A stretch of 64,000 nt of DNA from Dolomedes plantarius (Eukaryota > Arthropoda > Arachnida > Araneae > Dolomedidae): NCBI GenBank assembly GCA_907164885.2, contig OU015495.1, positions 99,112,832-99,176,831 on the forward strand, in the 5' to 3' direction. Shown piece after piece: positions 1 to 60,628 of this stretch; positions within the stretch are counted from its first letter, which is position 1; each line of letters starts with the position of its first letter. The translations under genes were made by a program, and so were the position numbers. A model generated the notes under the pieces. The model did not search any database. It was not told the DNA's origin and worked only from the letters and a program-made list of their open reading frames with translations.

Positions 1-566
1 TTCATTTTAAATTTTTTATTGTTAATCACAAAAGATTGAAAATTTTGAGTTGTATATCCTAATTCTTTCTGAAAATTGTAAAACTGCAAATCAAATATAT
101 TATTTTTATTGCATTATATATATATTTATGTTATTACAATATATCACTTAAAAATGGAATTTTTCAAACCTTCATTTTAATATGTTTTTCAGTTTTTATT
201 TATACATTCAATCAAAAAAAAATATATTCTGAAATAGAAAGTTGGTTGAAAACATTCTTTCGCAGTTGTTAAACAACATATCCGAAAATATCCACTCCTA
301 TAACACTCCTATTTTTTAAATAGATTGACTTCTTTCTTTTCATTATTTTGAAACTATTATGTACATATTCGATCAAAAATAAAGTTTTAAATAATAACTT
401 TAAAATTGTGGACAAAAAGCAGTCTGAAATACATTACGTATTTCCTAAACAAACACATCCGAAAATATGACGATTTCCCCTATTTTCTAAGTAGACTAGC
501 TTATCTTGCGCATGCGTAACAGCTTCCAGGGACCTAGCTTCCGTGGTCGGACTGTATATATATATA

Positions 567-985
567 CTAGCAATATTGCCCGGGTAGATATATAGATATA
601 AAATTTTTCATGCATTCCATAAAAAAAATACTGGGCTGCTACCCCCGCAAAATAAATACTTCGCCCTCCCTCCCTGTCACCCCCAGACCAACTCTCAAAC
701 CACCCCTCAGAACAAACCTCTTTCCCCCCCGCGTATCGAATTAGACTGGTTGTGGTGAAGGGGCTGTATCCATATTTAAGAGGTGCACTTAGGGACATAA
801 AAATCATTAAAAAATTAATAATAATAATAAAAAAACTAATTGAGCCCCAAATTTCGTTTTTCCTGATTTAAGTTTCTCGGGTCCTAAACATTAACTGTGC
901 TGAATTTGGTCCCGGTGGGTGAAACAGTCTATGATTCTATAGCGGACAAACAAACAGACAAGATCTTTTATATATATATTGCCGA
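567..985 (-). mobile_element. Possible Helitron fragment
   Basis: On the minus strand the segment ends CTACCCGGGCAATATTGCTAG followed by T, like Helitron 3' ends (CTRR with T outside). The opposite end has the TATATATAAAA start seen in arthropod Helitrons, but the TC is not clear. No coding potential. Confidence 0.4.
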
Positions 986-1932
986 CTTTTTTTTTATTTA
1001 ATGTTCACATTAGATAATAATTTTTAACTATGATAGCAAAAATGTAACTATAAGTACACCAAATATTCGATTTTTAGTTTGATTCAATGTATAGTTCCTG
1101 CATAGATTGTACGATAAATTATGGTAATAAAATGCTTTATGTTGAATTTAAGAAAGCTTCACATAATTTATATGTATAAATTATGTTTGCAGCCACTATT
1201 TTTACATAAAAAATAAGTGAGATTTTATAGCAGATTAAAGGCGAAATTTTGGAGTCATTTGAACTTAAAACTATGAAAAATGAAATCTTTCCATATATTT
1301 TGTAGAAATTTTACATAGCTATTTAATAACAAATAAATTTCCTGTTGGACAAATGAACTGCTTGAGATTACCTTTCTATTGATAGATATTGTCCATTCAA
1401 CATTCAGAAACAGATAAATGGGTTCTACAGTTAAATAATCTCAGAATTGCTACAATAAAAATGGATTTTGACTTTCAATCTTAAAAAATTTCACAAAGTC
1501 TAAATGTTTGAATTTAAAAACATCCTATTTGAAAATGTGCTATATTTTAAATTATGAATAAAGGTGTAATATACAAATAAATTTTAATAGCATGTGTTTT
1601 TAATGCTGAAATCCAAAAAGCAATTATAGAAAATTTTATAATTATAATATACTCAATGACTGTCTATTTTATATTGTTGACCATCACTGTTTTTAAAAAT
1701 TGCCATTAAAACTATCAATTCTTTGTTCATTCTAGCTTTTAAAAATTCAAAGATACCACAGGAAATATAACATTTGAAATTTACAAATCAAATAAAACTA
1801 CAGTTGTGTACTGCAAACATGATCTAAAACTGTTTCACAATAACACTGTCTTAGGCATGGTTAAGAAATTTTTATTTATTTTTTAAATTGACACACTGTT
1901 AATCAAATGTCTACAGTCTGCCAAAATCTTAC
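986..1932. other. AT-rich stretch, nothing recognised
   Basis: Bases 1-566 and 986-1932 are very AT-rich with no long open frame or clear repeat. The final ASPM exons would be expected left of this window. Confidence 0.5.
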
Positions 1933-2085
1933 CTCAGCTTTTCTAGGGTCCTGGGAAAATATCCACAACAGAGAGCAGCATTTTGTAAATATCGCAGTTC
2001 CCTTTTCTCGGAATATTTTCATCAACTGGATAACTGTGTCTATAGAACCTTTCTCATTCCAAACATAGTCTACTGTTTTGTTATG
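1933..2085 (-). CDS. ASPM: ASPM C-terminal exon ([11 protein letters not shown])
   Basis: A 153-nt exon, phase 0 in and out, between TTTTCTAG and GTAAGA. It encodes [20 protein letters not shown] and [17 protein letters not shown], matching ASPM [20 protein letters not shown] and SIFTKTCCLLAIL. The gene continues past the left edge, because the final tail exons are not in bases 1-1900. Confidence 0.82.
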
Positions 2086-5000
2086 CTAGAAAACAAAACA
2101 ACACAAGCTTTACAAACAGATTAGACACTATGTATCATTCATAACACATAACAATCTATATATATAAAACAGTTCCACAACTGACTGACAGATAACACAC
2201 AGACCGAACCGCTGCACCTAAAAGTCTGAAATTTTGCATGGCAATTCTTATAGTGTAAGGGTGCACAAAAAAAGATTTTTGAAAATTAAATTTATAAGCT
2301 GCTTTTGTAACTTTTATAAAGTTTGCATTTAGAATAATAATATGGGGGATTATAAAATTTAGATCACGAGAAATATCATAAAAATTCCTTTAAAATGAAA
2401 TTTTTTTCGAATCTTTACTCCCGATTTCTGATTTTTGGTGAATTTTTAAAGATTAATTTTTAGAATTCAATTTATTAAATGGTGATTATGTGGTTTCTTT
2501 TCTTTTTGTGTTACTTTAAATTAATTTTGCGTCACGTGCATAACGAAATAAATTGACCAAAAAATATTAAAATACAGTAAAAGATAAAATTTAACCACTA
2601 GACTAATTGCTATGGAAGTTTTTAAAGAATTTAATTCAAATTAGTATGTTTTATGGATATTAAGCATATAAATTAACATACATTGACCGTTGTATTTATT
2701 ATAAATATATATATTTTTTAGTTTTTGGCATTAATTGCATACATTGACCGTTGTATTTAATTTGAATGTGCTCTATAGCGAAGTACAGCTATTTAGCTAG
2801 TACTTCATAAATCTGAATTCATTTTTATGCATTCAGTTTTTATCATTTTGCAATACTAATTTAATATTAAAAAAAAAAGAAGGGGGGGGGGGGTTAAGTA
2901 TACACTGAAGTCCTAGAAAAACTGGGATATATGTCCAATACATCGTTGAGCATCAGCTAGTAAAACCGATACCATAGCAGTGAACGTTGTACAGTCCTCA
3001 AGCTAATGTTAGTAGAAGCCCTAGCATTGAATTGCGATGCTATTTGTGCCAATGTCGCACTCATTTCACTTGATATGATTGTCAGCAGACGACACCAGTC
3101 ATGATCATTCAGTCTCCAGACAGCCATACTATCACAGCTGCCCAGAGACTTTATGGGGCCTGGGGCAAACTTCTGTTGGACATCAAGAATAAACAAGATA
3201 TGAGTCGCATTAAGAATAAACAAGATATGTCAAGAGTTAGCGGATGCAGGTTCCCCAGTACCAGAAATCGACAAAGTGTACCAATTAACGCAGTTCTTAC
3301 CACAACAGTATGAACTTATTATACAGTCAATATACAAATTATCCGATAAAGAATTCAACTTTCAAACTGCATTAGAAGAACTCCTGTCTGAGCAAGCAAG
3401 ATTACGACAGAGGAGGTTAAACAGACTGACTTTGGATTCTACTCTGGACCCGAACCCGATGTGCATAAAGCATGGACAAATAGCCGACCCAGTTATCCAG
3501 ACTCCCGGACAGCATCCTCGTCTAGAAGAGATTCATCCCTACAAGAGAGAAGACCTTGAAAGAAAGATGTACAGTGCTATGGATGCAAAAAGTTTGCACA
3601 TTTCAAGTCAGAGTGCACAGACGGTAAAATCCGACATATGTTCCAGTCTCATCACCGAGGTCTCGTTCAAGAAATTCTTCTGTGTCAAAGAGAAACGACC
3701 AGTCGCTACTTTTAGAGGCATTATCAGCTGATGAGGTGAATACGTCCTGGATAACTGACTTGGGTGCTACTTCACATTTTTCCAACCAAAAGATGTTGCT
3801 CCACGATTTCGAAGACGTAAAGGACCACTCGCTGTATGGAGCCGGAATCGACATGTCAACCCCAGTTCTCGGTAAAGGTAAGGTGCATATGACTATTAAT
3901 GGTGAACGATATGTTTTAAAAGATGTACTGTATGCCCCCAGTTTGAGAAAGAATCTTATCTCAGCTTCCAGGCTTGACAGTAAAAAATGTGAATTTACAG
4001 GTAGTAACTCTAAAATAAATGTGTATAAAAATAACAAATTTATATTTTCGGCTAAATTAAATAATGGACTGTATTATGTTTATCCTGATAAAATAGATAA
4101 AGTGTCAAACGTAAATAATGTTGAAACTAATAATTGTGTAAAGTCATGTAATTCAAATGTAAGTAACAGCTTTAATGATGAGAAGCCTTTAAAATTTAAA
4201 AGTAATAAGTCAAAAGGTAAAAAGAGCATTACTTTTGCTTTGGTAGATATAAATTCTTTACATAGACGGTTCGCACATATAAATACAGATTACATAAAAA
4301 ATACTTATAAGCATAACTGTGTTCGAGGCATGTTAGAACCAACTGGCACCCCCAGGAATTGTGAAGCTTGTTGTGAAGCAAAACAGAGCCGCGTTAGTTT
4401 TAAAAGTATCGAGGCCAAGCGTAGTAAGAAACCATTGGACATTTTACATATGGATCTCTGTGGTCCTTTACCCAACCAATCTTTTGAAGGTCACCATTAC
4501 TTTTACACTACAATTGATGACTACTCAAGAAAAACCCATGAATTCCCCATTAAGCATAAATCTGATGCATTTGATATTTTTAAGAATTTTGTTAAATGTG
4601 CAGAAAGGTTTCAGGATTGTAAAGTAAAGTGTATCAGGACTGACAATTGTTGTGTTGATATTATTGGAAGAATAATTATTAATTTTATTAACGGTTCCTA
4701 CCGCGATTTTTTAATATAGTAACGCTAAATAAAAGGTTTAAATAAAGAATGTTTAAGTCTCTACTGATTTTAAAATGATTTAACGTATTAAATAAGTTTG
4801 TAAAGTGGCCTGGTTGAAATTATTCTAATTATTCTTTGTGAGCTGGTGAATTGTACTTAAAAGTTTTCTCTTTGTAAGCGTCTATCCTATCCTTATTTCT
4901 TATGGGTTTCGGCCTGGTAATATGAAACCACGGTTTTTGCCATTTTCGTGGGAAATCTCTCGAGAACCCAGACTTGAGGATGGATTTTGCAGGCCGCAGG

Positions 5001-8000
5001 AATGTGAAGGGGGTCAACAGACATCGGCCGATCCCCGGCTCAGAGCAATGCGCAAGGTTACATTTTTGACGTGGACAGCGGTGGTGCAGAGGAATTTTAA
5101 TAGAGTATGAGGGCAAGTTCAAAAGAAGAAATAAAATTGTTATGAAGATCCAAAAGATGAATTTTGCGGCCTTCATCCTTTTTCCTGGAGGTTGATGTTC
5201 GGAATCGACGGTGCGAGATTGTACTTGATGGCGAGACGCGCATGAACACATGGGGTGTGGCGGCAGACCTGAGAGAAAAAAAGTGGAAGCGGGAGATTCT
5301 GAACGTGGACGGCTAAAGACTTCGGTCTTGACGCTCCCAGGAAGATGCAGCCTGATCCAGAGAACCACCTTTATTCGGGTGAAACCCACATTTTTTTCTT
5401 TTCCGTTCTTTAGTTTCTATCCTTAATTTCTCTTTATTTTGAAAGCTATAGCGAATCCCTAAGAATTTTTATTTTATTTTATTTTTATTTTTAACTTAAA
5501 ATGCTAGCAATTAAGATCAAAGTTGAAAAAGGGTTTTTTTTATGATTATTTCACCAGCCACACTCTTATTAATCTTCTATCTTGATTTTGTTCAATTAAT
5601 AGTGTGTAATTAGTATTAGAATTGAGTTTATCGGAATAGTGTTGTGTTAATTAAAATTTGTAACATCGGATTAATATTTAAAAGAATGAATGTATAGGGA
5701 TGATTACTAAAATTGTACAAGTATGTTATGTGTGAATCAACTGTCCAAATAAAATGTTATGTTAAATGTTATCAGTCGTTTGTCGTCTTTACCAGTGTTG
5801 AGTTTAAATTATTTTTATTTCAGCATTATTGAAGATTATTTTTATTTCAGCAGATGTGAGTTAGTTTTTTCTTTTAGGAGAAGTAGATTTTGTTTTAGGT
5901 GTGCTTCTAGAATAGGGAAGTAGTTTTCTTTAATTTTCTAATGATTTTAATTTAATTTAATTTTTTATCCTTGCTCATATCCACCACAGTGGAATAGACA
6001 GTTAAAAGAACCTGGTATAAAGTTAAAATTATATGTTATTGGGTTATTGCGGTTAAAATTAAATTTTTTTTTTTTGAGGTTTTCACAACGCGCCTCAACT
6101 TAATATCATCAAACCTATTTTCTTTAAAATGTACCAACCTTTCCTTTTTTTTCGTTACAACACAATGGTCTTGAATTTATTAATTCAAAGTTTAAATCTT
6201 TTTGTGATGACCTTGGTATTAAGCACGAAGTGATGAATAGCTACTCCCCGGAGATGAATGGGGCGAGCGAGAGATATAACCGCACTGCAATTAATGCCAT
6301 AAATACTTTGTTGTGAGACAGCGGTTTAAGCTCTGGTTTTTGGAGCAAAACTCTACTATATTTTACATACACCTGGAATAGAGAGATTCACAGTGGTAAA
6401 ACATTAACACCATTTGAATTATATGGAGGGCGTCCACCATCAGTAAAGCCCTTAAAACCTTTTGGATGTAAGGCTGATTTAGGTATTCCCAGACAACAGA
6501 GAAGAAAGCTAGATATGAGATCCAAACACGGGATAATGGTAGGATATGCTCGACTGACCAAGGGGTATCGTATTTGGATTCCAGAGATGAGGAAAATAGT
6601 CGAATCGATCAATGTCAGATTCGATGAATCTACTATAGGTCGCCAAAATAGTGAGCAGAGTATTGAAGTGGACAGTGAACTGGACCCATATGATAATTAT
6701 ATAAATATTACAGTTCCCAAGGTAGATCCTGTTGTGAGTGATGACTTTGACCCTATTGAAGGTTTGTATAAAGATGCACCCAGAAGTAGAAAAGTAACCC
6801 TGTTAGAAAGGGATAATGTAGAAAGTTCCGATGAGGAAAGCAAAAGTGAAGGGGATCCCGAGGAAAGTCGTCAATTGGGTACGGAAGCCAGTCCTTTGCC
6901 CAGATGGAAGCAAGGTTGATATTTATTATTTCGAAGAAGGGAAAACACAAAGTCTACGTTCCCTCAACGAAGTTAAGACATACTGTGAACTATATAGTAT
7001 TAGGTATGAACCCAACATATTTTCGTTTTCCGGAAAGGACTTGTACGCAGGCATAGTTAAGGGGACTCCAATAGCAAACCTTGGTGATGATGTTGAATTA
7101 CTTGAAATCCCTAAACATTACGAACAGGCCGTAAATCTAATAATAGAAAAGAATGGATTAATGCAATGAAGGAAGAATTAAGTTGGATGAGGGAATGCGA
7201 CGTATGGGATGTGGTTGAAAGACCTGCCGGTGCTAAGCCACTCAGTTGCAGATGGGTATACACTGTCAAAAAGAATCCCGCAAGAAAAATAGAGCGTTTC
7301 AAAGCAAGACTTGTAGCCCAGGGTTTTCGCCAGGCATACGGTGATTCGTATGAAGAAGTCTTTAGCCCCGTCGTAAATTTTAGTTTGATCCGTCTTTTTT
7401 TTCTATTTTAGTTTGCTTGAATAAATGGTGCCACATACAATGTGATATAAGGAGCTGACTGAAAATCATGACTGTTAAGTGAACTAGGTATTTCGAAATT
7501 CAGTTGGTGCAATTGCGTCTATGGTTTTGAAAACAACATTATAATTCTGTTGTATGTGGACTATATCGTAGTATTTGGGAAAACCGAAAAGTATGCTGCC
7601 AAAGCTATACACCTATTGCAAAGTAACTTTGAATTGAAAGTTCTAGGTAAAACCCAAAAATTATTAGGTGTGGAGTTTACTGAAACCGCGGGCAATTTAT
7701 ATTTACACCAGTATAGTTACATAGACAAGTTTTGTAATGATTTAAAAAATTATAATTTCCCAATCTCATCTTTACCAATAGTGAAAGGTTGTATTTATTC
7801 TAAATCTCAAAGTCCCCAGACTAATGATGAAATTGCTGAAATGAACAAATTGCCATATCGCAGTTTAATAAGTTGCCTAGCATTTTTATCAAGTAGAACC
7901 CGGCCAGACATAGCATACACACTTACTGTGTTTTCTCAATTTCAAAATAATCCTGGAATAGCCCATTGGGAAGGTTTACTTAAATTATTGGGTTATGTTC

Positions 8001-11000
8001 AATGTACTCGAAATCTTAGAATCAATCAATCAAACATTAGTACCCTAGACCTTACTGCATACAGTGATGCAAATTTTGCAAATAACAAAGACGATAGAAC
8101 TTCAATGGGAGGTTATGCAATTTTCATAGGTAATGTACCTGTAGAATCAAGTTAGTAAAACAAAAATGTGTTAATTTAAGTTCGATGGAATCCAAAATTC
8201 GTTTCTGTTACTGATACCAGCTAAAGAACTAATATGGTTCAAAAGAATTCTGGATGAAACTCTTAATTACAATCTAATAAAAGAAAATTACATAAGTTGT
8301 TTATTTGTTGACAATCAAGCAGCTATCAATTTTATTAAATCCCCCATCGAAAACCATCATACTAAACATATAGATACAAAACTTTTCTTTGTAAGAGATC
8401 TAGTTTATAAAGAATTTTTTAATATACAATATATTCCTAGTGAAAATAATCTTGCTGATCAATTCACTAAAGCTGTTACAAAACAAAGTTTAAAAAAGCT
8501 TAATAGTTGCATTTTTAAAGATGTATGATGTTTGTGTTTAAAATTTAAACAAGAACTTTTAATTACAACTTGCATAAGGATTTTTTTCGTCTTTGATTCA
8601 TTATTTTTGAATGAGTTTGTTTTAAGTACTTTTTTTCACTTTCATGTATTTGTATACAATTAAAAATGCGGTTAGTATTAGCTGTTTGAATATCTATACA
8701 TGTTAGTTTTGAATTGTCAGTGTAAATTATACATAATGAATCTACCGGCCTATTTCTTTAATGTTTTTTGAATCTATATTTTTGTACCAACTTCCGTATT
8801 TTTTTTTTTACCTGTTTATGCCAACTGTATTATTTGTAAGAGAATTGAAGAAATTTTCTTGGACGTTAAATTTTGTTCGGGATCGTTTTATTTTAGGTCA
8901 AATAAGTTTTTGTTAGGTATGACGCAGTTTTTGAGTCTTTTTCCAAATTGGCAAGAGGGGGGCACTTGTTGGGATACCCGCCACTCTCTGTCTTCCCAAT
9001 TTGGAAGTTAAACGTTATGTTGCTTTTCCCGTACAGTGAGTGAGGTGCATGCTTTGGGAATGATGTGATGTAACCGTTTCTTTGCGATCGCAAGTTGCGA
9101 TGTTCGGACGTCATTCCCGAATGCTAGTTGCGAGTTTGAATTTAACATTTCTTTTTTTTTTCGGTGTGTGTTTTTGTAATGTTTGTTATTGTAAGTGTAG
9201 TAATTTTGTTATTATAAGTGAAGTATTACATTTTTGTGACAATTATATTGACGTTTATTTGGTGTAAAATTTTTTTTTGCATATGCAAATCAGCCAGATG
9301 CACATGTTGTTTGAATGTATATAACGTGCTGGCTTTTACTTAGCTTTCGTGGGGTCAGTCGGAGCATTGTGTTAGACCAAAAGCTATTGTCGATGCTAAA
9401 TGTTAGCTCGAGTTTACTTTGTGGTGAAAATAAATCTACGTTTTTGTTTTTTAAACGACTGCCTCTTTCTCTTGGTGCGGGTCAACGGAAGAGCACAGTT
9501 CCTGAGGCGTGAAGCATCTTTCTCTCATTAGGGAGGAAAATTTCAGAGAGATGAGCTTTGGCTGAGCTGTTTTTCCACCTTCTTCCTTTGCCCGCCGTTT
9601 CGCCATGAAGAGTTCTTATCATACTCCCCGGCCTACAGGTGGAAGTCCTGATGAGATGATGATGACCTAGTTTGCTGCTCAGTTATTCTTGGACATGTCC
9701 GATATTACCTTTACTACAAATTCCTTTCTTTCTATTTCTCTTCCCTTTTTTTTAAAGCCTCAGACGGAGTGGTAAAGATTTTTTTTAAAATTTTGGTTAA
9801 GTTTAATTAACAGTTAAGTTTAATCTATGAGGAGCTCCATAATTAAATTTTTTTTTAAGGGTTTTGCTAACCACATTTGTGTATTTATTATGTTGAGTGC
9901 ATTTATTTACTAGTAACTCCCTGTATTAACTGCTAGGGAGCCTGTGAGTTATGATAATAATGTTTGAAATATAAAAATGATTTAAGAGTTACTCCCTTCC
10001 TTTTGTATGTGTCAGGGAACAAAGGTATTGTAATGTTAACTTTTGAAATATAAAATAAATGTAGTTGTTGCCTCTAACCTTGTGTTTAGTAAATTTTGAG
10101 TTTTGTTTTAAATTTATTTATTGGTGGGCCAACAAGATAATTTTTTCTATAGGTATCACCACTATATGATCAGAAATAAATAAGTTAGTATTCATACCAG
10201 TTTAAGTTAAAAGAAAGAAAAAAAAATCATAATAAGAAGACTATTTTGAAGTAAGAGAAATCTAAGTAATCGAATAAATTTTTTTATATGTTTTGGGGCC
10301 CCCTTTTTTAGGAGATTATTTTCAATTTTGAAGTACAGTACAAGTTTCAAAATTTTCTTTTGGATGAAATCTAATAAATTAATTTTTAAATTTTTTTGGG
10401 GGCCCCTCCAGCAGTTAGGGGCCTGGGGTAAAGTGTCCTAGTTGCCCCCCTCTCTGGGTGGCCCTGTATCACAGTAGGTTCAGTGTTTTACTAGAATTCT
10501 TCTATTCAAGGTACTTCCTTGAAATAGTCAAAGTTAAAGATCTAAACTTTGTGTGTATCTGCAAAATGCTATGACCCATTGCACAAGCACCAACTATCAT
10601 ACCTCCTTACAATTCACTTAAATCCTGATCACCTGCTATGTTCACTACTCAATCAGATATTTAAGCATCCATAAATATCTGTTGCTTTATATAAGGAGTT
10701 TGCAGATGAAAGCATTAATGCAAAAGTGAGTATTAGTACAAGCTCCGAAAGTGGCTGCCTATCCCAGTTATTCTGGCATACATATTTTTTAAATTAAGGA
10801 GGATAATTTGAACACAAACAAATATAGTTAATAAACCATGATTTAGAAAATCTGAATAAACTTGAAAAGATTTAGAATATTATAGCTTTATATTTAAAAA
10901 AAATGTTTCACTAAGTTCAAAACAATGAGAAAATTAGAATGGACTGTAAATATTTACAGGTATAAAAAGCAGCAAAATATTAGTCATATTTGATGCCATT

Positions 11001-14000
11001 AAAAGCATATTTCTTTGCATGAAGATAGATAGGATTTTAATAAGGAGTAACAAATAGTAAAGTTACATAAAAGTAAAAAGTTGATAAAATAATAATGGAA
11101 TGGAAAGACATAACATACTTCTGAAAGTAATAAATGATATTAAAAAGTATCAAAATAGAAAGTAATCCATTAATGATTGCAAACTACCATCAAATTCCAA
11201 GAGAATCATTTTACCTTATTAATATGTCTATCAAAAATAAGTTTCCTAGAGACTTATTCCAGACAGAGATATTCACTATTTTCTTAGGTTTTATTAAGGA
11301 GATTAATCCTTTACAGGTAAGCTCCTTTTGCATTGTTTGAAAAAGGGCTTTTAAGAATGATCATTTACAGACTTCATACTCAAAGAGATTGATTTCCTCC
11401 TAGATTTTCACTCTTCTGTATTGAGAAACATACCTCAGATTCACTGATAAAAGTTATTGAAAATAATATAAAACTTTAGAGAAACAAAAAATGTGTATCT
11501 AAAATGTTTCAAATGTTACAGTTAAAAAAAGATGAGTACATGCTGTCCAACATAATTAATATAGCACAAACTTTAACAGTAGTAATGCAGTAAAATTTGA
11601 CGGATTTTGATTTTTCTAAATTTGAATGAAAGATAAAAACTGGGAATGAAACTAATTTTTTTTTCCAAATTGTAACATTTTCTAGTAATGATGAGAGATT
11701 CTTATTTTTAGTGATAAATTACTGATAAGGAATAATCAGTCTGAAAAAAAATATATACATATATCAAAGAAATATATACTTACTTTTGAAAGGTTTAATA
11801 AAATGTTAGCAGTAAGCTTAATAAGTTCCATGTGAGGAACGCTCCTATTGCAAAAGCGAACCAGTTGTATTAATATTGTCAAACCACCAGATGCAACAAG
11901 TCTTTCACAGCATTTTGGAGATAATTTGGTGCAGACATCTAAAGAGTTAATGGCAAATACAAAAAATTAATAAATATATGTAACCATTTACACATAAATA
12001 ATTTTATTGAGGAAATTTCAACATTTTTAGGCCAAATATTTCACATACATTGAAATACAGGTAATTCTTAAATTTCTGATTAGTAAAAGAAATTGTGCTG
12101 GGTATAGCTGTGAATGCTTATTACACTGGTGTAAGAAATTAAGAGAATTTGCAGACTTGGTTGATTATCTCTAGAAATACTGTACCGATTTTAATGAAAT
12201 TTGATATGTACATACATTGATACAATACAAAACAAATAACCATTCAATAATTGTAATACACACGCATGATCGTGCATAACACTCGTTGGAGTCGGAAGGT
12301 ATGAAACAGCAGTTGCAGAAAAAAACAAAAAAATGGGTTAATAAATGGGTTAATTGGGGGTATGGCCCCCTCTAACAGATATACAGGTCTCGCAGCGTGA
12401 TTTCATACTTGAAATAAGGCAGTTATCATTTCCTGTGGCAATTGGTCCCACTCGTCAGCAATGCTGTTTTCATTCCCTGGATGGTTCTCGGAGGGGAAGT
12501 TGCGAGTTGCAATTGCCCTCCCCAGAGTGTCCCAGACATGCTCTATAGGGTTAAGGTCTGGAGATCTGGGTGGCCAATCCAATCCAGCGAATATCCTCAC
12601 TCTCTAGAAATTTGTCGACCAGAAGAGCTCTATGTGGCCTCGCGTTATCGTCCATTAAAATGAACTCAGGGCCAACTGCACCCCTGAAAAGGCGAACATA
12701 GGGCTCCAAGACCTTATCCCTATACCTCAACCAGTCACAGTGCCTCTTTCAAAGACATGGAGAGGTGTGCAGCCATCCCAACATGATGCCTGCCCAGACC
12801 ATTAAACCTCCTTTGCCATAATGGTCGATTTCGCGGACATTGGAGGGTAGGTAGTGGGTCCTGGTTCTCTCCATATGAACGTACGGCGAGAATCGGTGTT
12901 TAGGCTGAACCGACCACTCATCATGAAAAGAACGGTCGCCCATGATCCATACTCCAATCTCTATGCTCTCTGCCCATGATAAACGGATTCTCCCTGTTCG
13001 TAGAAGTGAGCGGGACGCAAACAGCAGGTCTTCTTGCAAACAACCCTCCTCTATGAAAGTCTTTTGGAAGCAATCACCCTTGATACACGGGTTCCTGTGG
13101 CTGCATACAAGTCACGAGAGAGAGCTGAGAAGCTGTAGCACTCCTGTTACGCCTCGCTATAATCAACAAATGGCGATCTTCTCTGGCTGTCGTGGCTCTT
13201 GGACGACCTTAGCCCAGGCTTTCTCTCGAAGGATACGGTACCATGGAACTGTTTCCGTCAGTTACACACGACGCTGGGCGTTAAATTGAACTCTCTACAA
13301 ATTTGGACTTGAGATTGGCCTGCTTCTAGCCTCCCCACAATTCGCCACCTCATTCCATCATTTAAAACGTTGGTGGTTACTCATTTTACTGTTACAATTT
13401 GAAATTAACCGATTGCTGCAAAATAACACCATCTATTAACCCATTTTTTTTGTTTATCCTGCAACTGCTGTTTCATACCTTCCGACTCCAACGAGTGTTA
13501 TGCACGATCATGCGTGTATATTACAATTATTGAATGGTTATTTGTTTTGTATTGTATCAATGTATGTACATATCAAATTTCATTAAAATCGGTACAGTAG
13601 TTCTAGAGATAATTGACCAAGTCTGCAAATTCTCTTAATTTCTTACACCAGTATAGTAAAAAATATGTAAATATGTATCTATAAAATTTCAACATAAGAT
13701 TTCAAAACATAAATTTATACAACTAAAAATAAATAGCTCAAATATATTTGAATTTTGATGAATACTATACTGAAAATGTTTAGTAAAATATAACAAATAC
13801 TTAATGGATATTTTTTAAATAATAATTATTATTGCAGGTTTACATAGATTCCTATAAATACAACAGGCTAATAACAAAAATAAATTTTTAAAGATTTTTA
13901 AACCAGTGATTCTCAACCTTTTTATGTCTAGGTCCCACTTTGGAAGTTGTTCAGAACCCTATGCACTTCCCCTTCCATCCTAAAACACCTAATAAAATAG

Positions 14001-26300: not shown

Positions 26301-29300
26301 AGTTCAATTTCTTTGAAAAATGAAATGATGCTGGTTTAATAATGTTAAAGAATGAATAAAAATTCAAAATTTGTTATGTTATCCATTTTCTCTGATTGTC
26401 TTTATGAATCAATTTACAACTAACTTGTGTGTCCCCTTACACAAATTTTGTTACCATGTTTATTCATACAAAAATAAAAGCTCTTTATTAAATCTTTTAC
26501 AATGATTGAAATATCCTTTATAGTACTCTTACATCTTAAGTTTTGAGTAAACATTAAAATGTATCCCACATGTTCACGACTGTAATCAACACACAGAGGA
26601 TAAACTAAAGAATGTTTCTTAAAAAAACAAAAAAGTATAATTCTAAAAATAAAATATGATTTATACATAATTTTTAAATAGCATATTAAATACATCAAGC
26701 CTTTGATGTTGTTCTTCTTCAACATATAAGTACGCCAAGCATGTAATATATTTTTCGTGCTGCTCGTATTTTCAATACTGAGTTCCATTAAATGGATATT
26801 AATGTAAGAAACTAAAGTGATCAATCACTTTCTCATCCGGCATTGTTATTGGGACATGGCAGAAGGAGTGGACATAAAACTGGAATATTACCACTTCTTG
26901 GGAACTGTGAAATAGATATATATATATATACATTGAAACACACTTTAAATTTCTCCTAAGCAAAATACAATAATTTCAAAACTATTTATTAATATTATAC
27001 ATTAAACTTTAGGCACAAATCAGAGTATTTTGCACAACATTAATCAGCCAACACCATTTAACATCAATTCCGGTTACATATTAAGCAGAGATTAAGACAA
27101 AATACTAGTTGTAGTATTGTACCAAATAGAAAAATACTTACAAAGTCTGTAGGTTATGTGCGATGACAGAATTTTTTTCAAAGTTATTAAGAATTAAAGA
27201 AATGAATACAATAAATAGCGATAATAACACAAAAAATGAATAAAATCCCCTTACTTTTTGAAACACCAGAGTTAAATTATCTTTTTCATTTTTCAGCAAC
27301 TTTTCCATAAGAGAATTTTGTTGGCCTGAAGGAATAAAAATATGAGCTATAACCGACAAAGAGTAAAAAGTACTTCAAACTTTTACAAACAATAATTAAA
27401 CTCATGACTGGCATGACAGCCCAGTGTGGGTCATGGCATTATTTCAAGCATTTCCCCATTCTAACCCCTCTTGGCCAGGCTTCTCCAATTTTTTATTCAA
27501 ATAATTTTAAGAACCTCTTCAATGCTATCCACTGATCTCAACCTTGGTTTTCATTAAAAATTCTGCATAATTCATTTTGAACATTTCCCACCATTTTTCA
27601 GCTATTTTAATGCTGCCAAACAATTTTCTCAGGAGCATCTTTCAAGTAAAACTAACAACATTTTTTTTTTTTTTTTTTTTTGGGGGGGGGGGGGGGGGTG
27701 TTAAGATCTAAACTTCGGAAGCCCCAACTGGTTACATTATAATTTTGTAAAGAAAGATTTTGGTTTCCCTGTTTAATACCAAACAGTTCAAACTACACAT
27801 AACTGTAACTCGATAACACCTCAGTTACATTTCTGTTTTTATTTAACAACTGCGGCCCGTCCCGACTTAGTCCGGGTTGAACAAAGATATTATGCCAATA
27901 AATTTCAGTTGATAGCCAATAAATTGTAAATCTTTTTTTACCTTAAGAAATACCCTAAATAATACCTTAAATTATTTTATGTTAGTTAATATTAAAATAA
28001 ATTTTTTAAAGAAAAAGCGTGCCGGAGAACGGCCAGGTTCGACAGCTAGCGTCAGAACAGAAGACCACCGCGATAGCACCACGATAAGGATCGTTGAGAA
28101 TCTCGGAACAAAAAGCGGTAGAAGACAGTAGCGGAAACAATGGAGACTGTTAGGGATTAAGCCCCTAACTTTATTTCTACTGATCAGATATAAATAATAT
28201 ATAGCCTATGTCCATCTGGAATAATGTTCCTTTCAAACAGTGAAAGAATTTCCTCAAATAGGTACAGTGGTTCTGAAGGTTTCCCTCCACGTACAAAATC
28301 GCTCTCCTCTTTATTATAAGTATAGATAGAACCACGCTAAGGATCGTTGAAGACCTTGGCACAAAAAGCGGTAGAGGACAGTAGCGGTAACAATGGAGAG
28401 TGTTTAGGATTAAGCCCCTAACTTTATTTCTACTGATAGAATATACATAATATATGCCTATGTCCATCTGGAATACTGTACCTTTTAAACAGTGAAAGAA
28501 TTTGTCAATAGGTACAGTGGTTCTGAAGATTACCCTCCACGTACAAAATCGCTCTCCGTCTTATAATATAAGTATAGATAGCACCACGTTAAGGATCGTT
28601 GAAGACCTCGGCACAAAAAGCGGTAGAGGACATAGCGGTAACAATGGAGATTGTTAGGATTTAATCCCCTAACTTTATTTCTACTGATTAGATAGACATA
28701 ATATATAGCCTATGTCCATCTGGAATACTGTACCTTTTAAACAGTGAAATATTTTCAAATAGGTGCAGTGGTTCTGAAAATTACCCTCCACGTACAAAAA
28801 TCGCTCATCATCCTTTAGATATAAGTATAGATAATTTTGTTCTGAGAATTAAAATCTGCCCCCACTCCAAAGTATCAACTCTAATTAATATAGATTTATT
28901 GTTAGTCAAAAGAAAATGTCAATGATATTAGTTAAGTGGCTAAACTGTTGGGCATTTAACTTCAAATTAAGATAGTCATTTCAGTAACAGCATTTAAGAA
29001 ATAACATACTGAGTAACTACAGATTTAGACTAAAGAAGTATTACATTAATTTAAAAATCTCAACTATAACTTCATACCAACTTCTGCTTTACAACACATA
29101 GATGCATACTTCCTCTGCTAAATAATTAAAGTAGTCCTCTGGCGACAAGACGTAGAAAAAAAGGGGTGTGTGTAAAAGCCTTTAAGACAATAATGAAATT
29201 GCAGCCTAATGTGCAAAGAAATCCATAAAGGGACAATCAAAACATACCAGTCTTCATTAGAATGGACAGCTGTCATTACTTCGGCAATTTCCAACTGTCG

Positions 29301-59778: not shown

Positions 59779-60628
59779 CTGAAAAGAAATGAATAGCTGT
59801 ATATAAAGGAAATATTAAAAATATTTCAAGTAAATTAAAAGTTAGATTACTATAATTTATACTAATATACTAGAATAACTATGATGTATACTAATAAAAA
59901 GAAAAAATTTAAAAAGGAAGCACTTATATTCAAAGTTATAAAACAATTTGAAACGGGAAATCTCCTTTATCCAAATGCATATACATGCTTGCTTATCGAT
60001 AATCACAAAATACATTTGAGAATTAATAATCACTTTAGCAAGATTATTTATAGCGATTGCATTCTGATAAATCTGTAACTTTAAACAATAAAGTTGGGTA
60101 ATTATGATTTAAGCTTATCAATTTTCTCTTAAAGATTACTTAGTTGAAAAACAATTTCAAGAACTTAAATTTGTGGAAAAAAGTTTTTTTTGCTTTTCAT
60201 AAATTTTAGTAATATAATTCATTAATATAATATAATGTAACAAATTTTAAAACAGTTTATTGTTTTAAAATAGCCATCATATATACAATTGATAAAAACT
60301 TCCTGGAAAATATAAAAAATACTTATTTAGATAAACTATAAGGCAGTTCACTATTTTTTCCCTCACTTCTTTAGACCCACATTCTTCTAAGCTCTTTAAG
60401 TGAATAAAAATGTGCCTTTGTGTGGCTGATAACACTTTAAAAGCATTTAAGATTTGCACAACTGATGCAAATAATGGAGCAAAAATAAAAAAAAATTTCA
60501 TTATATAGTATCATTTTGAATCAAAAAAGAAAAGACTGGAATTTAATGGACTTTGGATAAATTTAAGATACAGACTGAAGGTGCAACTCTTGGGTCATAA
60601 AAAATCAAATGAGTACTTTTCCTTACAA

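What the first reader, a model, noticed from the sequence alone, without database searches (positions are those of the whole stretch)
6831..7169. MBD-like reader domain inside a Ty1/copia polyprotein, between integrase and reverse transcriptase
Seen: a compact block with W-[VI]-R, a Gly-Ser-Lys loop, D-I-YY, GKTQSLRSLNEVKTYCE and FSFSGKD sits where copia elements normally have only a linker. Known: this spacing is that of methyl-CpG-binding domains; chromoviruses carry chromodomains after integrase that guide insertion. Inference: this copia lineage acquired a methyl-DNA or DNA-binding module that could target methylated gene bodies, which would fit its presence inside an ASPM intron.
Basis: partly seen in the sequence, partly recalled or inferred. 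Interest (0 to 1): 0.75.

Follow-up and report, generated by a model that had tools for sequence, protein, structure and literature searches.

The report
Spider copia with methyl-DNA reader domain
A decayed jumping gene in this window belongs to a family of spider-related retrotransposons whose integration and copying machinery contains a domain of the kind that recognises methylated DNA, which suggests, without proof, that these elements read DNA methylation when choosing where to insert.

Summary
Frame 6831-7166 (+) lies between the integrase SH3-like domain and the reverse transcriptase of a broken Ty1/copia element. Its core, 6867-7052, is a methyl-CpG-binding domain (MBD). The window copy alone scores below the Pfam cut-off (11.9-12.9 bits, cut-off 21), but three lines agree. 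(1) A homology search with the integrase C-terminus, SH3 and linker, and without the MBD, found 12 proteins. Ten carry the domain by profile and an eleventh breaks off inside it. One passes the Pfam MBD cut-off (28.9 bits). (2) The family profile compared with five solved vertebrate MBDs gives 95.5% probability. (3) AlphaFold2 gives pLDDT 93, and the 30 best VIA-aligned rows are MBD/TAM structures. Named carriers are Araneus ventricosus, Trichonephila clavipes and T. clavata; other carriers are unnamed. Five residues that read methyl-CpG in MeCP2 are kept together in 20 of 28 distinct relatives. The window copy lacks one, and a Trichonephila clavipes subfamily differs at three. The most likely role is guiding integration to methylated CpG chromatin, as chromodomains and the Ty5 targeting domain guide theirs; this is inferred, not tested. 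'Inside an ASPM intron' was not established. My paper searches showed no retrotransposon with an MBD.

The parts
3204..3728 (+). remnant of copia gag (Retrotran_gag_2, just under its cut-off)
   Evidence: Pfam PF14223 E 6e-6, 26.3 bits, cut-off 27
3682..4719 (+). pol part 1: Pol_BBD, gag_pre-integrase and the first part of the integrase core
   Evidence: Pfam PF22936 5.7e-19, PF13976 7.9e-7, PF00665 5.1e-6 (below its cut-off)
4690..6160 (.). foreign stretch that interrupts the integrase core (limits approximate and by eye, origin not determined)
   Evidence: resemblance to copia stops and resumes across it, by eye; CpG o/e 1.03 against 0.69 and 0.67 on either side
6317..6919 (+). integrase C-terminal part, SH3-like domain and acidic linker
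   Evidence: Pfam PF25597 E 1.8e-13 on the 6515-6919 part; open piece used as query
6867..7052 (+). methyl-CpG-binding domain (in the 6831-7166 frame). MeCP2-equivalent sites: W104 at 6876-6878, R111 at 6897-6899 (Cys here), D121 at 6918-6920, Y123 at 6924-6926, R133 at 6957-6959, E137 at 6969-6971
7053..7165 (+). short spacer between MBD and RT, with the 'IPKHYEQA' stretch that precedes RT
   Evidence: same layout in relatives P0022, P0023, P0037, P0033
7115..7411 (+). reverse transcriptase, N-terminal part
   Evidence: Pfam RVT_2 2e-20 on 7166-7411
7472..8155 (+). reverse transcriptase, C-terminal part, and following region
   Evidence: Pfam RVT_2 1.3e-7 on 7550-8155
8175..8528 (+). RNase H-like end of pol, recognised by eye only
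   Evidence: open frame; not scanned against Pfam

Best explanation
The block is a methyl-CpG-binding domain built into the pol polyprotein of a Ty1/copia lineage, on the carboxyl side of the integrase SH3-like domain and just before RT (shown). It was probably taken up once by an ancestor of this lineage and has been kept while the linker beside it changed freely (supported). It most likely stays attached to integrase and binds symmetrically methylated CpG, so that the pre-integration complex is held on methylated DNA (inferred). In spiders that would be mainly exons of expressed genes and some methylated transposons. The window copy is a dead, mutated example.
Confidence: 0.55

Rival explanations
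1. True MBD, but it binds DNA or protein without reading methylation, as TAM or SETDB-type MBDs can (recalled), and gives the integrase a general hold on DNA or a chromatin partner.
For: SETDB2 MBD is VIA rank 1 (tied with MBD4 and MeCP2) and BAZ2 TAM domains are among the best matches; one subfamily has changed three recognition sites.
Against: Five recognition residues kept in 20 of 28 distinct relatives.
Confidence: 0.25
2. The MBD acts against silencing: it covers methylated copies of the element or competes with host MBD proteins, and does not choose insertion sites.
For: TE methylation exists in spiders, at moderate level (PMC7343188 passages).
Against: It is fused into pol beside integrase, where little free protein is expected (inference); 3.2% of Parasteatoda TEs are in the highly methylated group.
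Confidence: 0.1
3. The domain stays with RT after processing and helps reverse transcription or binding of the cDNA.
For: It lies closer to RT (about 35 residues in four relatives) than to SH3 (median 73 residues in 76 relatives).
Against: cDNA made by RT is unmethylated (established knowledge), so the methyl-CpG residues would have no use.
Confidence: 0.08
4. Chance resemblance in an ordinary copia linker.
For: Window copy alone is below the Pfam cut-off; a vertebrate-only profile ranks it 57th among itself and 20,000 shuffles, and second among the window's frames.
Against: Family conservation, a Pfam match over the cut-off, profile and fold matches.
Confidence: 0.02

Closest known systems
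MBD family (Pfam PF01429: MeCP2, MBD1-4, plant MBD5/6)
   Same: W-x-R start, arginine-finger positions, D-x-Y strand, R-S before the helix, F-x-F end; predicted fold within 2.2 A of MeCP2 over 57 residues
   Different: Part of a retrotransposon polyprotein; loop between the first two strands three residues shorter; Cys in the helix in all 29 distinct rows (C52)
Chromoviruses (Ty3/gypsy with a chromodomain after integrase)
   Same: Chromatin-mark reader fused behind integrase in an LTR retrotransposon
   Different: Type I chromodomains read histone H3K9 methylation, not DNA methylation; gypsy, not copia. In the plant survey PMC6317226 (passages) chromodomains were found in no other group of the LTR elements included
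Ty5 integrase targeting domain
   Same: Yeast element whose integrase carries a targeting module (PMC4700185 passages); that Ty5 is copia-type and the module C-terminal is recalled
   Different: Binds the protein Sir4; not a DNA-reading domain
DNMT-bearing retrotransposons
   Same: Retrotransposons that took up DNA-methylation machinery (PMC5890265, start of abstract and one passage)

Membership tests
Methyl-CpG-binding domain (PF01429) | Sequence match to the Pfam profile over its cut-off | tested here: inconclusive
   Window copy 11.9-12.9 bits, under the cut-off of 21; relative P0004 28.9 bits, over it, four of ten relatives under it and five without a hit; 26 of 33 trimmed family rows hit MBD at E up to 10
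Methyl-CpG-binding domain (PF01429) | Profile-level homology to solved MBDs | tested here: met
   hhalign probability 95.5, E 1.4e-8; the five reference MBDs checked letter for letter
Methyl-CpG-binding domain (PF01429) | MBD fold | tested here: met
Methyl-CpG-binding domain (PF01429) | Recognition residues R111, D121, Y123, R133, E137 (MeCP2) | tested here: inconclusive
   All five in 20 of 28 distinct relatives and 30 of 60 in all; window copy has four of five
Methyl-CpG-binding domain (PF01429) | Binds methylated CpG in preference to unmethylated | not testable with these tools
   Needs a binding assay
Ty1/copia element | Integrase before RT, with SH3_retrovirus and RVT_2 domains | tested here: met
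   PF22936, PF13976, PF25597, PF07727 over their cut-offs, in that order on one strand; integrase core PF00665 under its cut-off in this broken copy
Ty1/copia element | Flanking LTRs | tested here: inconclusive
   No direct repeat pair of 40 bases or more in 1-12000, none by self-BLAST of 1-14000; the copy is decayed, and LTRs may be lost or too divergent to see
Chromovirus | Ty3/gypsy with chromodomain | tested here: not met
   Copia domain order; Pfam finds no chromodomain in the frame

The most novel reading that the evidence does not exclude
A whole lineage of spider copia elements carries a DNA-methylation reader in pol and uses it to guide insertion to methylated CpG, in spiders chiefly exons of steadily expressed genes: methylation as an integration signal, with one subfamily now drifting away from methyl-CpG reading.
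Probability: 0.4. Interest if true: 0.85.

Novelty: new variant of a known kind. Interest (0 to 1): 0.7.

Why it matters
The chromatin readers in LTR retrotransposons that I know of (chromodomains, the Ty5 targeting domain) read histones or chromatin proteins. A reader of DNA methylation in the same place would give a direct link between a host methylome and the choice of insertion sites. It could be tested by computation in spider genomes that have many copies and a methylation map.

Tried and rejected
Single-sequence AlphaFold2 of the whole frame was poor (pLDDT 40), and its Foldseek list, which holds no MBD among the 50 rows shown, was discarded. Homology search with the frame alone found nothing. 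Scans of IMG/VR for the frame, for RT, and for relatives P0012, P0022 and P0034 gave no confirmed locus. PDB sequence search with the single window sequence gave no MBD among 11 matches. In the PDB profile search 16 of 26 matches are MBD/TAM; the other ten are unrelated chains from E 0.47.

Hits without the domain: 40 of 122. 17 of the 40 end within 77 residues after SH3; 23 run further. Of these 23, 19 are Trichonephila clavipes and 4 Araneus by name. By eye most of the 23 are gene models in which the stretch is cut out, with remnants of its edges left in the sequence; I had proteins only, not their DNA, so true deletions are not excluded. P0012, the one distant hit, has 40 residues after SH3 and cannot decide. 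One search listed 120 of 260 hits; the other 140 were not seen. From 34 distinct domain rows I left out one truncated row (P0006) for alignment A2. The profile was built in two rounds from six seeds picked by eye (P0001, P0004, P0009, P0010, P0011, P0013), so five of the ten carriers among the hits were seeds; the test leaves the window row out.

Origin from a particular host MBD gene was not resolved. No Rfam match in the window. The species of the window was not determined.

Literature: ten searches counted. Seven looked for an MBD or methyl reader in a retrotransposon: 15 of 104 papers listed; 15 of 73; 16 of 16; 3 of 3; no paper. No listed title or abstract start showed one. The library lacks most subscription journals and holds no preprints. 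Papers seen as passages: PMC6338049, PMC8616336, PMC8811898, PMC7343188, PMC6317226, PMC4700185, PMC5890265; abstract and outline only: PMC6409797; all others only in listings.

Full report
What is there. The window holds a decayed Ty1/copia element on the plus strand at about 3.2-8.5 kb. Pfam finds Pol_BBD, gag_pre-integrase, part of the integrase core (under its cut-off), SH3_retrovirus and two parts of RVT_2 in order, and a gag remnant just under its cut-off. By eye the integrase core is interrupted by about 1.5 kb of other sequence and the centre of RT is missing. The domain lies in another frame than the SH3-linker piece and the RT piece. No LTR pair was found. The frame of the finding, 6831-7166, runs on towards RT as in the relatives ('IPKHYEQAV' before the RT start; compare), so it is part of the polyprotein and not a stray frame.

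Is the domain an MBD? The window sequence alone leaves it open. The full frame has no Pfam hit at E up to 1. Trimmed to the domain, MBD is the only hit, at E 0.085-0.18 (11.9-12.9 bits) and under the cut-off of 21. A profile of five vertebrate MBDs puts the sequence 57th among itself and 20,000 shuffles, about p 0.003, and second among the window's own frames. So I looked for relatives with a query that does not contain the domain: the open piece 6317-6916 (integrase C-terminus, SH3, acidic linker). It gave 12 proteins. Ten carry the domain by profile (five of these were seeds of that profile, picked by eye). P0007 ends within the first residues of it (by eye). P0012 ends 40 residues after SH3 and cannot tell. 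P0004, from Araneus ventricosus, passes the Pfam MBD cut-off with 28.9 bits; of the ten proteins scanned four more hit MBD under the cut-off and five do not hit it.

A second search with the alignment of 11 of these gave 260 proteins, 120 listed. Over both searches there are 122 distinct proteins, and 82 carry the domain. Four of the 122 have MBD among their precomputed Pfam domains (P0004, P0042, P0100, P0120). Named organisms among the carriers are Araneus ventricosus, Trichonephila clavipes and T. clavata; the others have no name. Of the 40 without the domain, 17 end within 77 residues after SH3 and 23 run further. By eye most of the 23 look like predicted gene models from which the stretch was cut, since pieces of its edges remain; without their DNA this is not proved.

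Is it kept? In 22 proteins with SH3, linker and domain complete, mean pairwise identity is 63% in SH3 and 45% in the domain. In the linker it is 26%, hardly above its shuffled control of 22%; the shuffled control for the domain is 19%. The linker is acidic (median charge -11) and the domain basic (+4). A domain conserved beside a free linker points to selection. Distances in SH3 and MBD are weakly correlated (r 0.27; 60 of 5,000 permutations reach it), which fits shared descent but is not strong.

Can it read methyl-CpG? In MeCP2 two arginines (R111, R133) contact the guanines, D121 and Y123 take part in contacts with the methyl groups, and D121 and E137 hold the arginines in place (PMC8811898, passages). 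The equivalent sites are R in 24, D in 23, Y in 26, R in 22 and E or D in 27 of 28 distinct relatives; 20 of 28 have all five. Counting all 60 near-full domains the figure is 30 of 60. Of the 30 that fail, 18 are one Trichonephila clavipes subfamily with K, N and K at R111, D121 and R133; the other 12 show scattered changes. The window copy has Cys at R111. So most of the lineage looks able to read methyl-CpG, one branch looks altered, and this copy is damaged.

How it most likely works. The domain lies behind the integrase, where the yeast element Ty5 has a targeting domain (PMC4700185, passages; copia type and exact position recalled) and gypsy chromoviruses have chromodomains assumed to give targeting preferences (PMC6317226, passages). 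By analogy it would tether integrase to methylated CpG. [quoted passage not shown] In chelicerates including the spider Parasteatoda TE methylation is called moderate, with 3.2% of Parasteatoda TEs in the highly methylated group (PMC7343188, passages). The expected targets are therefore exons of active genes, and to a smaller extent methylated transposons. None of this targeting is tested here. The IN/RT cut is unknown, so the domain could also stay with RT, which begins about 35 residues further on in four relatives.

The ASPM point. Exons with an ASH domain (59332-59814) and IQ motifs (19.2-25.5 kb; the 19.2-kb one just under its cut-off) on the minus strand fit ASPM. The element lies beyond the last of these in the direction of transcription. 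Only one frame beyond the element was scanned (499-867, no hit). Whether it is in an intron or downstream of the gene is open.

Novelty. Seven searches aimed at an MBD in a retrotransposon listed none by title or abstract start (two of these listed only 15 of 104 and 15 of 73 papers), and the passages seen of a paper on accessory domains (PMC6338049) and of a survey of plant LTR elements (PMC6317226) do not name one. The library is open-access only. The match is already visible as an automatic Pfam label on single deposited proteins. I rate it a new variant of a known kind: an LTR element with a chromatin reader, but a reader of DNA methylation and in copia.

Noticed in passing
12118-13659: Inverted repeat of 239 bases, 94.6% identical, around frames that look by eye like a broken Tc1/mariner transposase
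   Followed up: no
28072-28833: About three tandem copies of a unit of roughly 250 bases, 87-89% identical
   Followed up: no
19243-59814 (-): ASPM-like gene on the minus strand: ASH domain exon at 59332-59814 and IQ exons at 19.2-25.5 kb
   Followed up: partly
4690-6160: Stretch inside the integrase core with CpG observed/expected 1.03, against 0.69 and 0.67 in the flanking element and 0.54 in the window; possibly a younger insertion
   Followed up: no
P0054, P0022 and 16 others: A Trichonephila clavipes subfamily keeps the MBD but has K, N and K at three of the five methyl-CpG recognition sites; a natural test of changed specificity
   Followed up: partly
2957-3223 (-): Short frame that resembles by eye the N-terminus of a Tc1-like transposase, beside the gag remnant
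   Followed up: no
P0003, and several of P0068-P0104: Deposited Trichonephila gene models seem by eye to cut out part or all of the MBD as an intron, so protein databases may undercount it
   Followed up: partly
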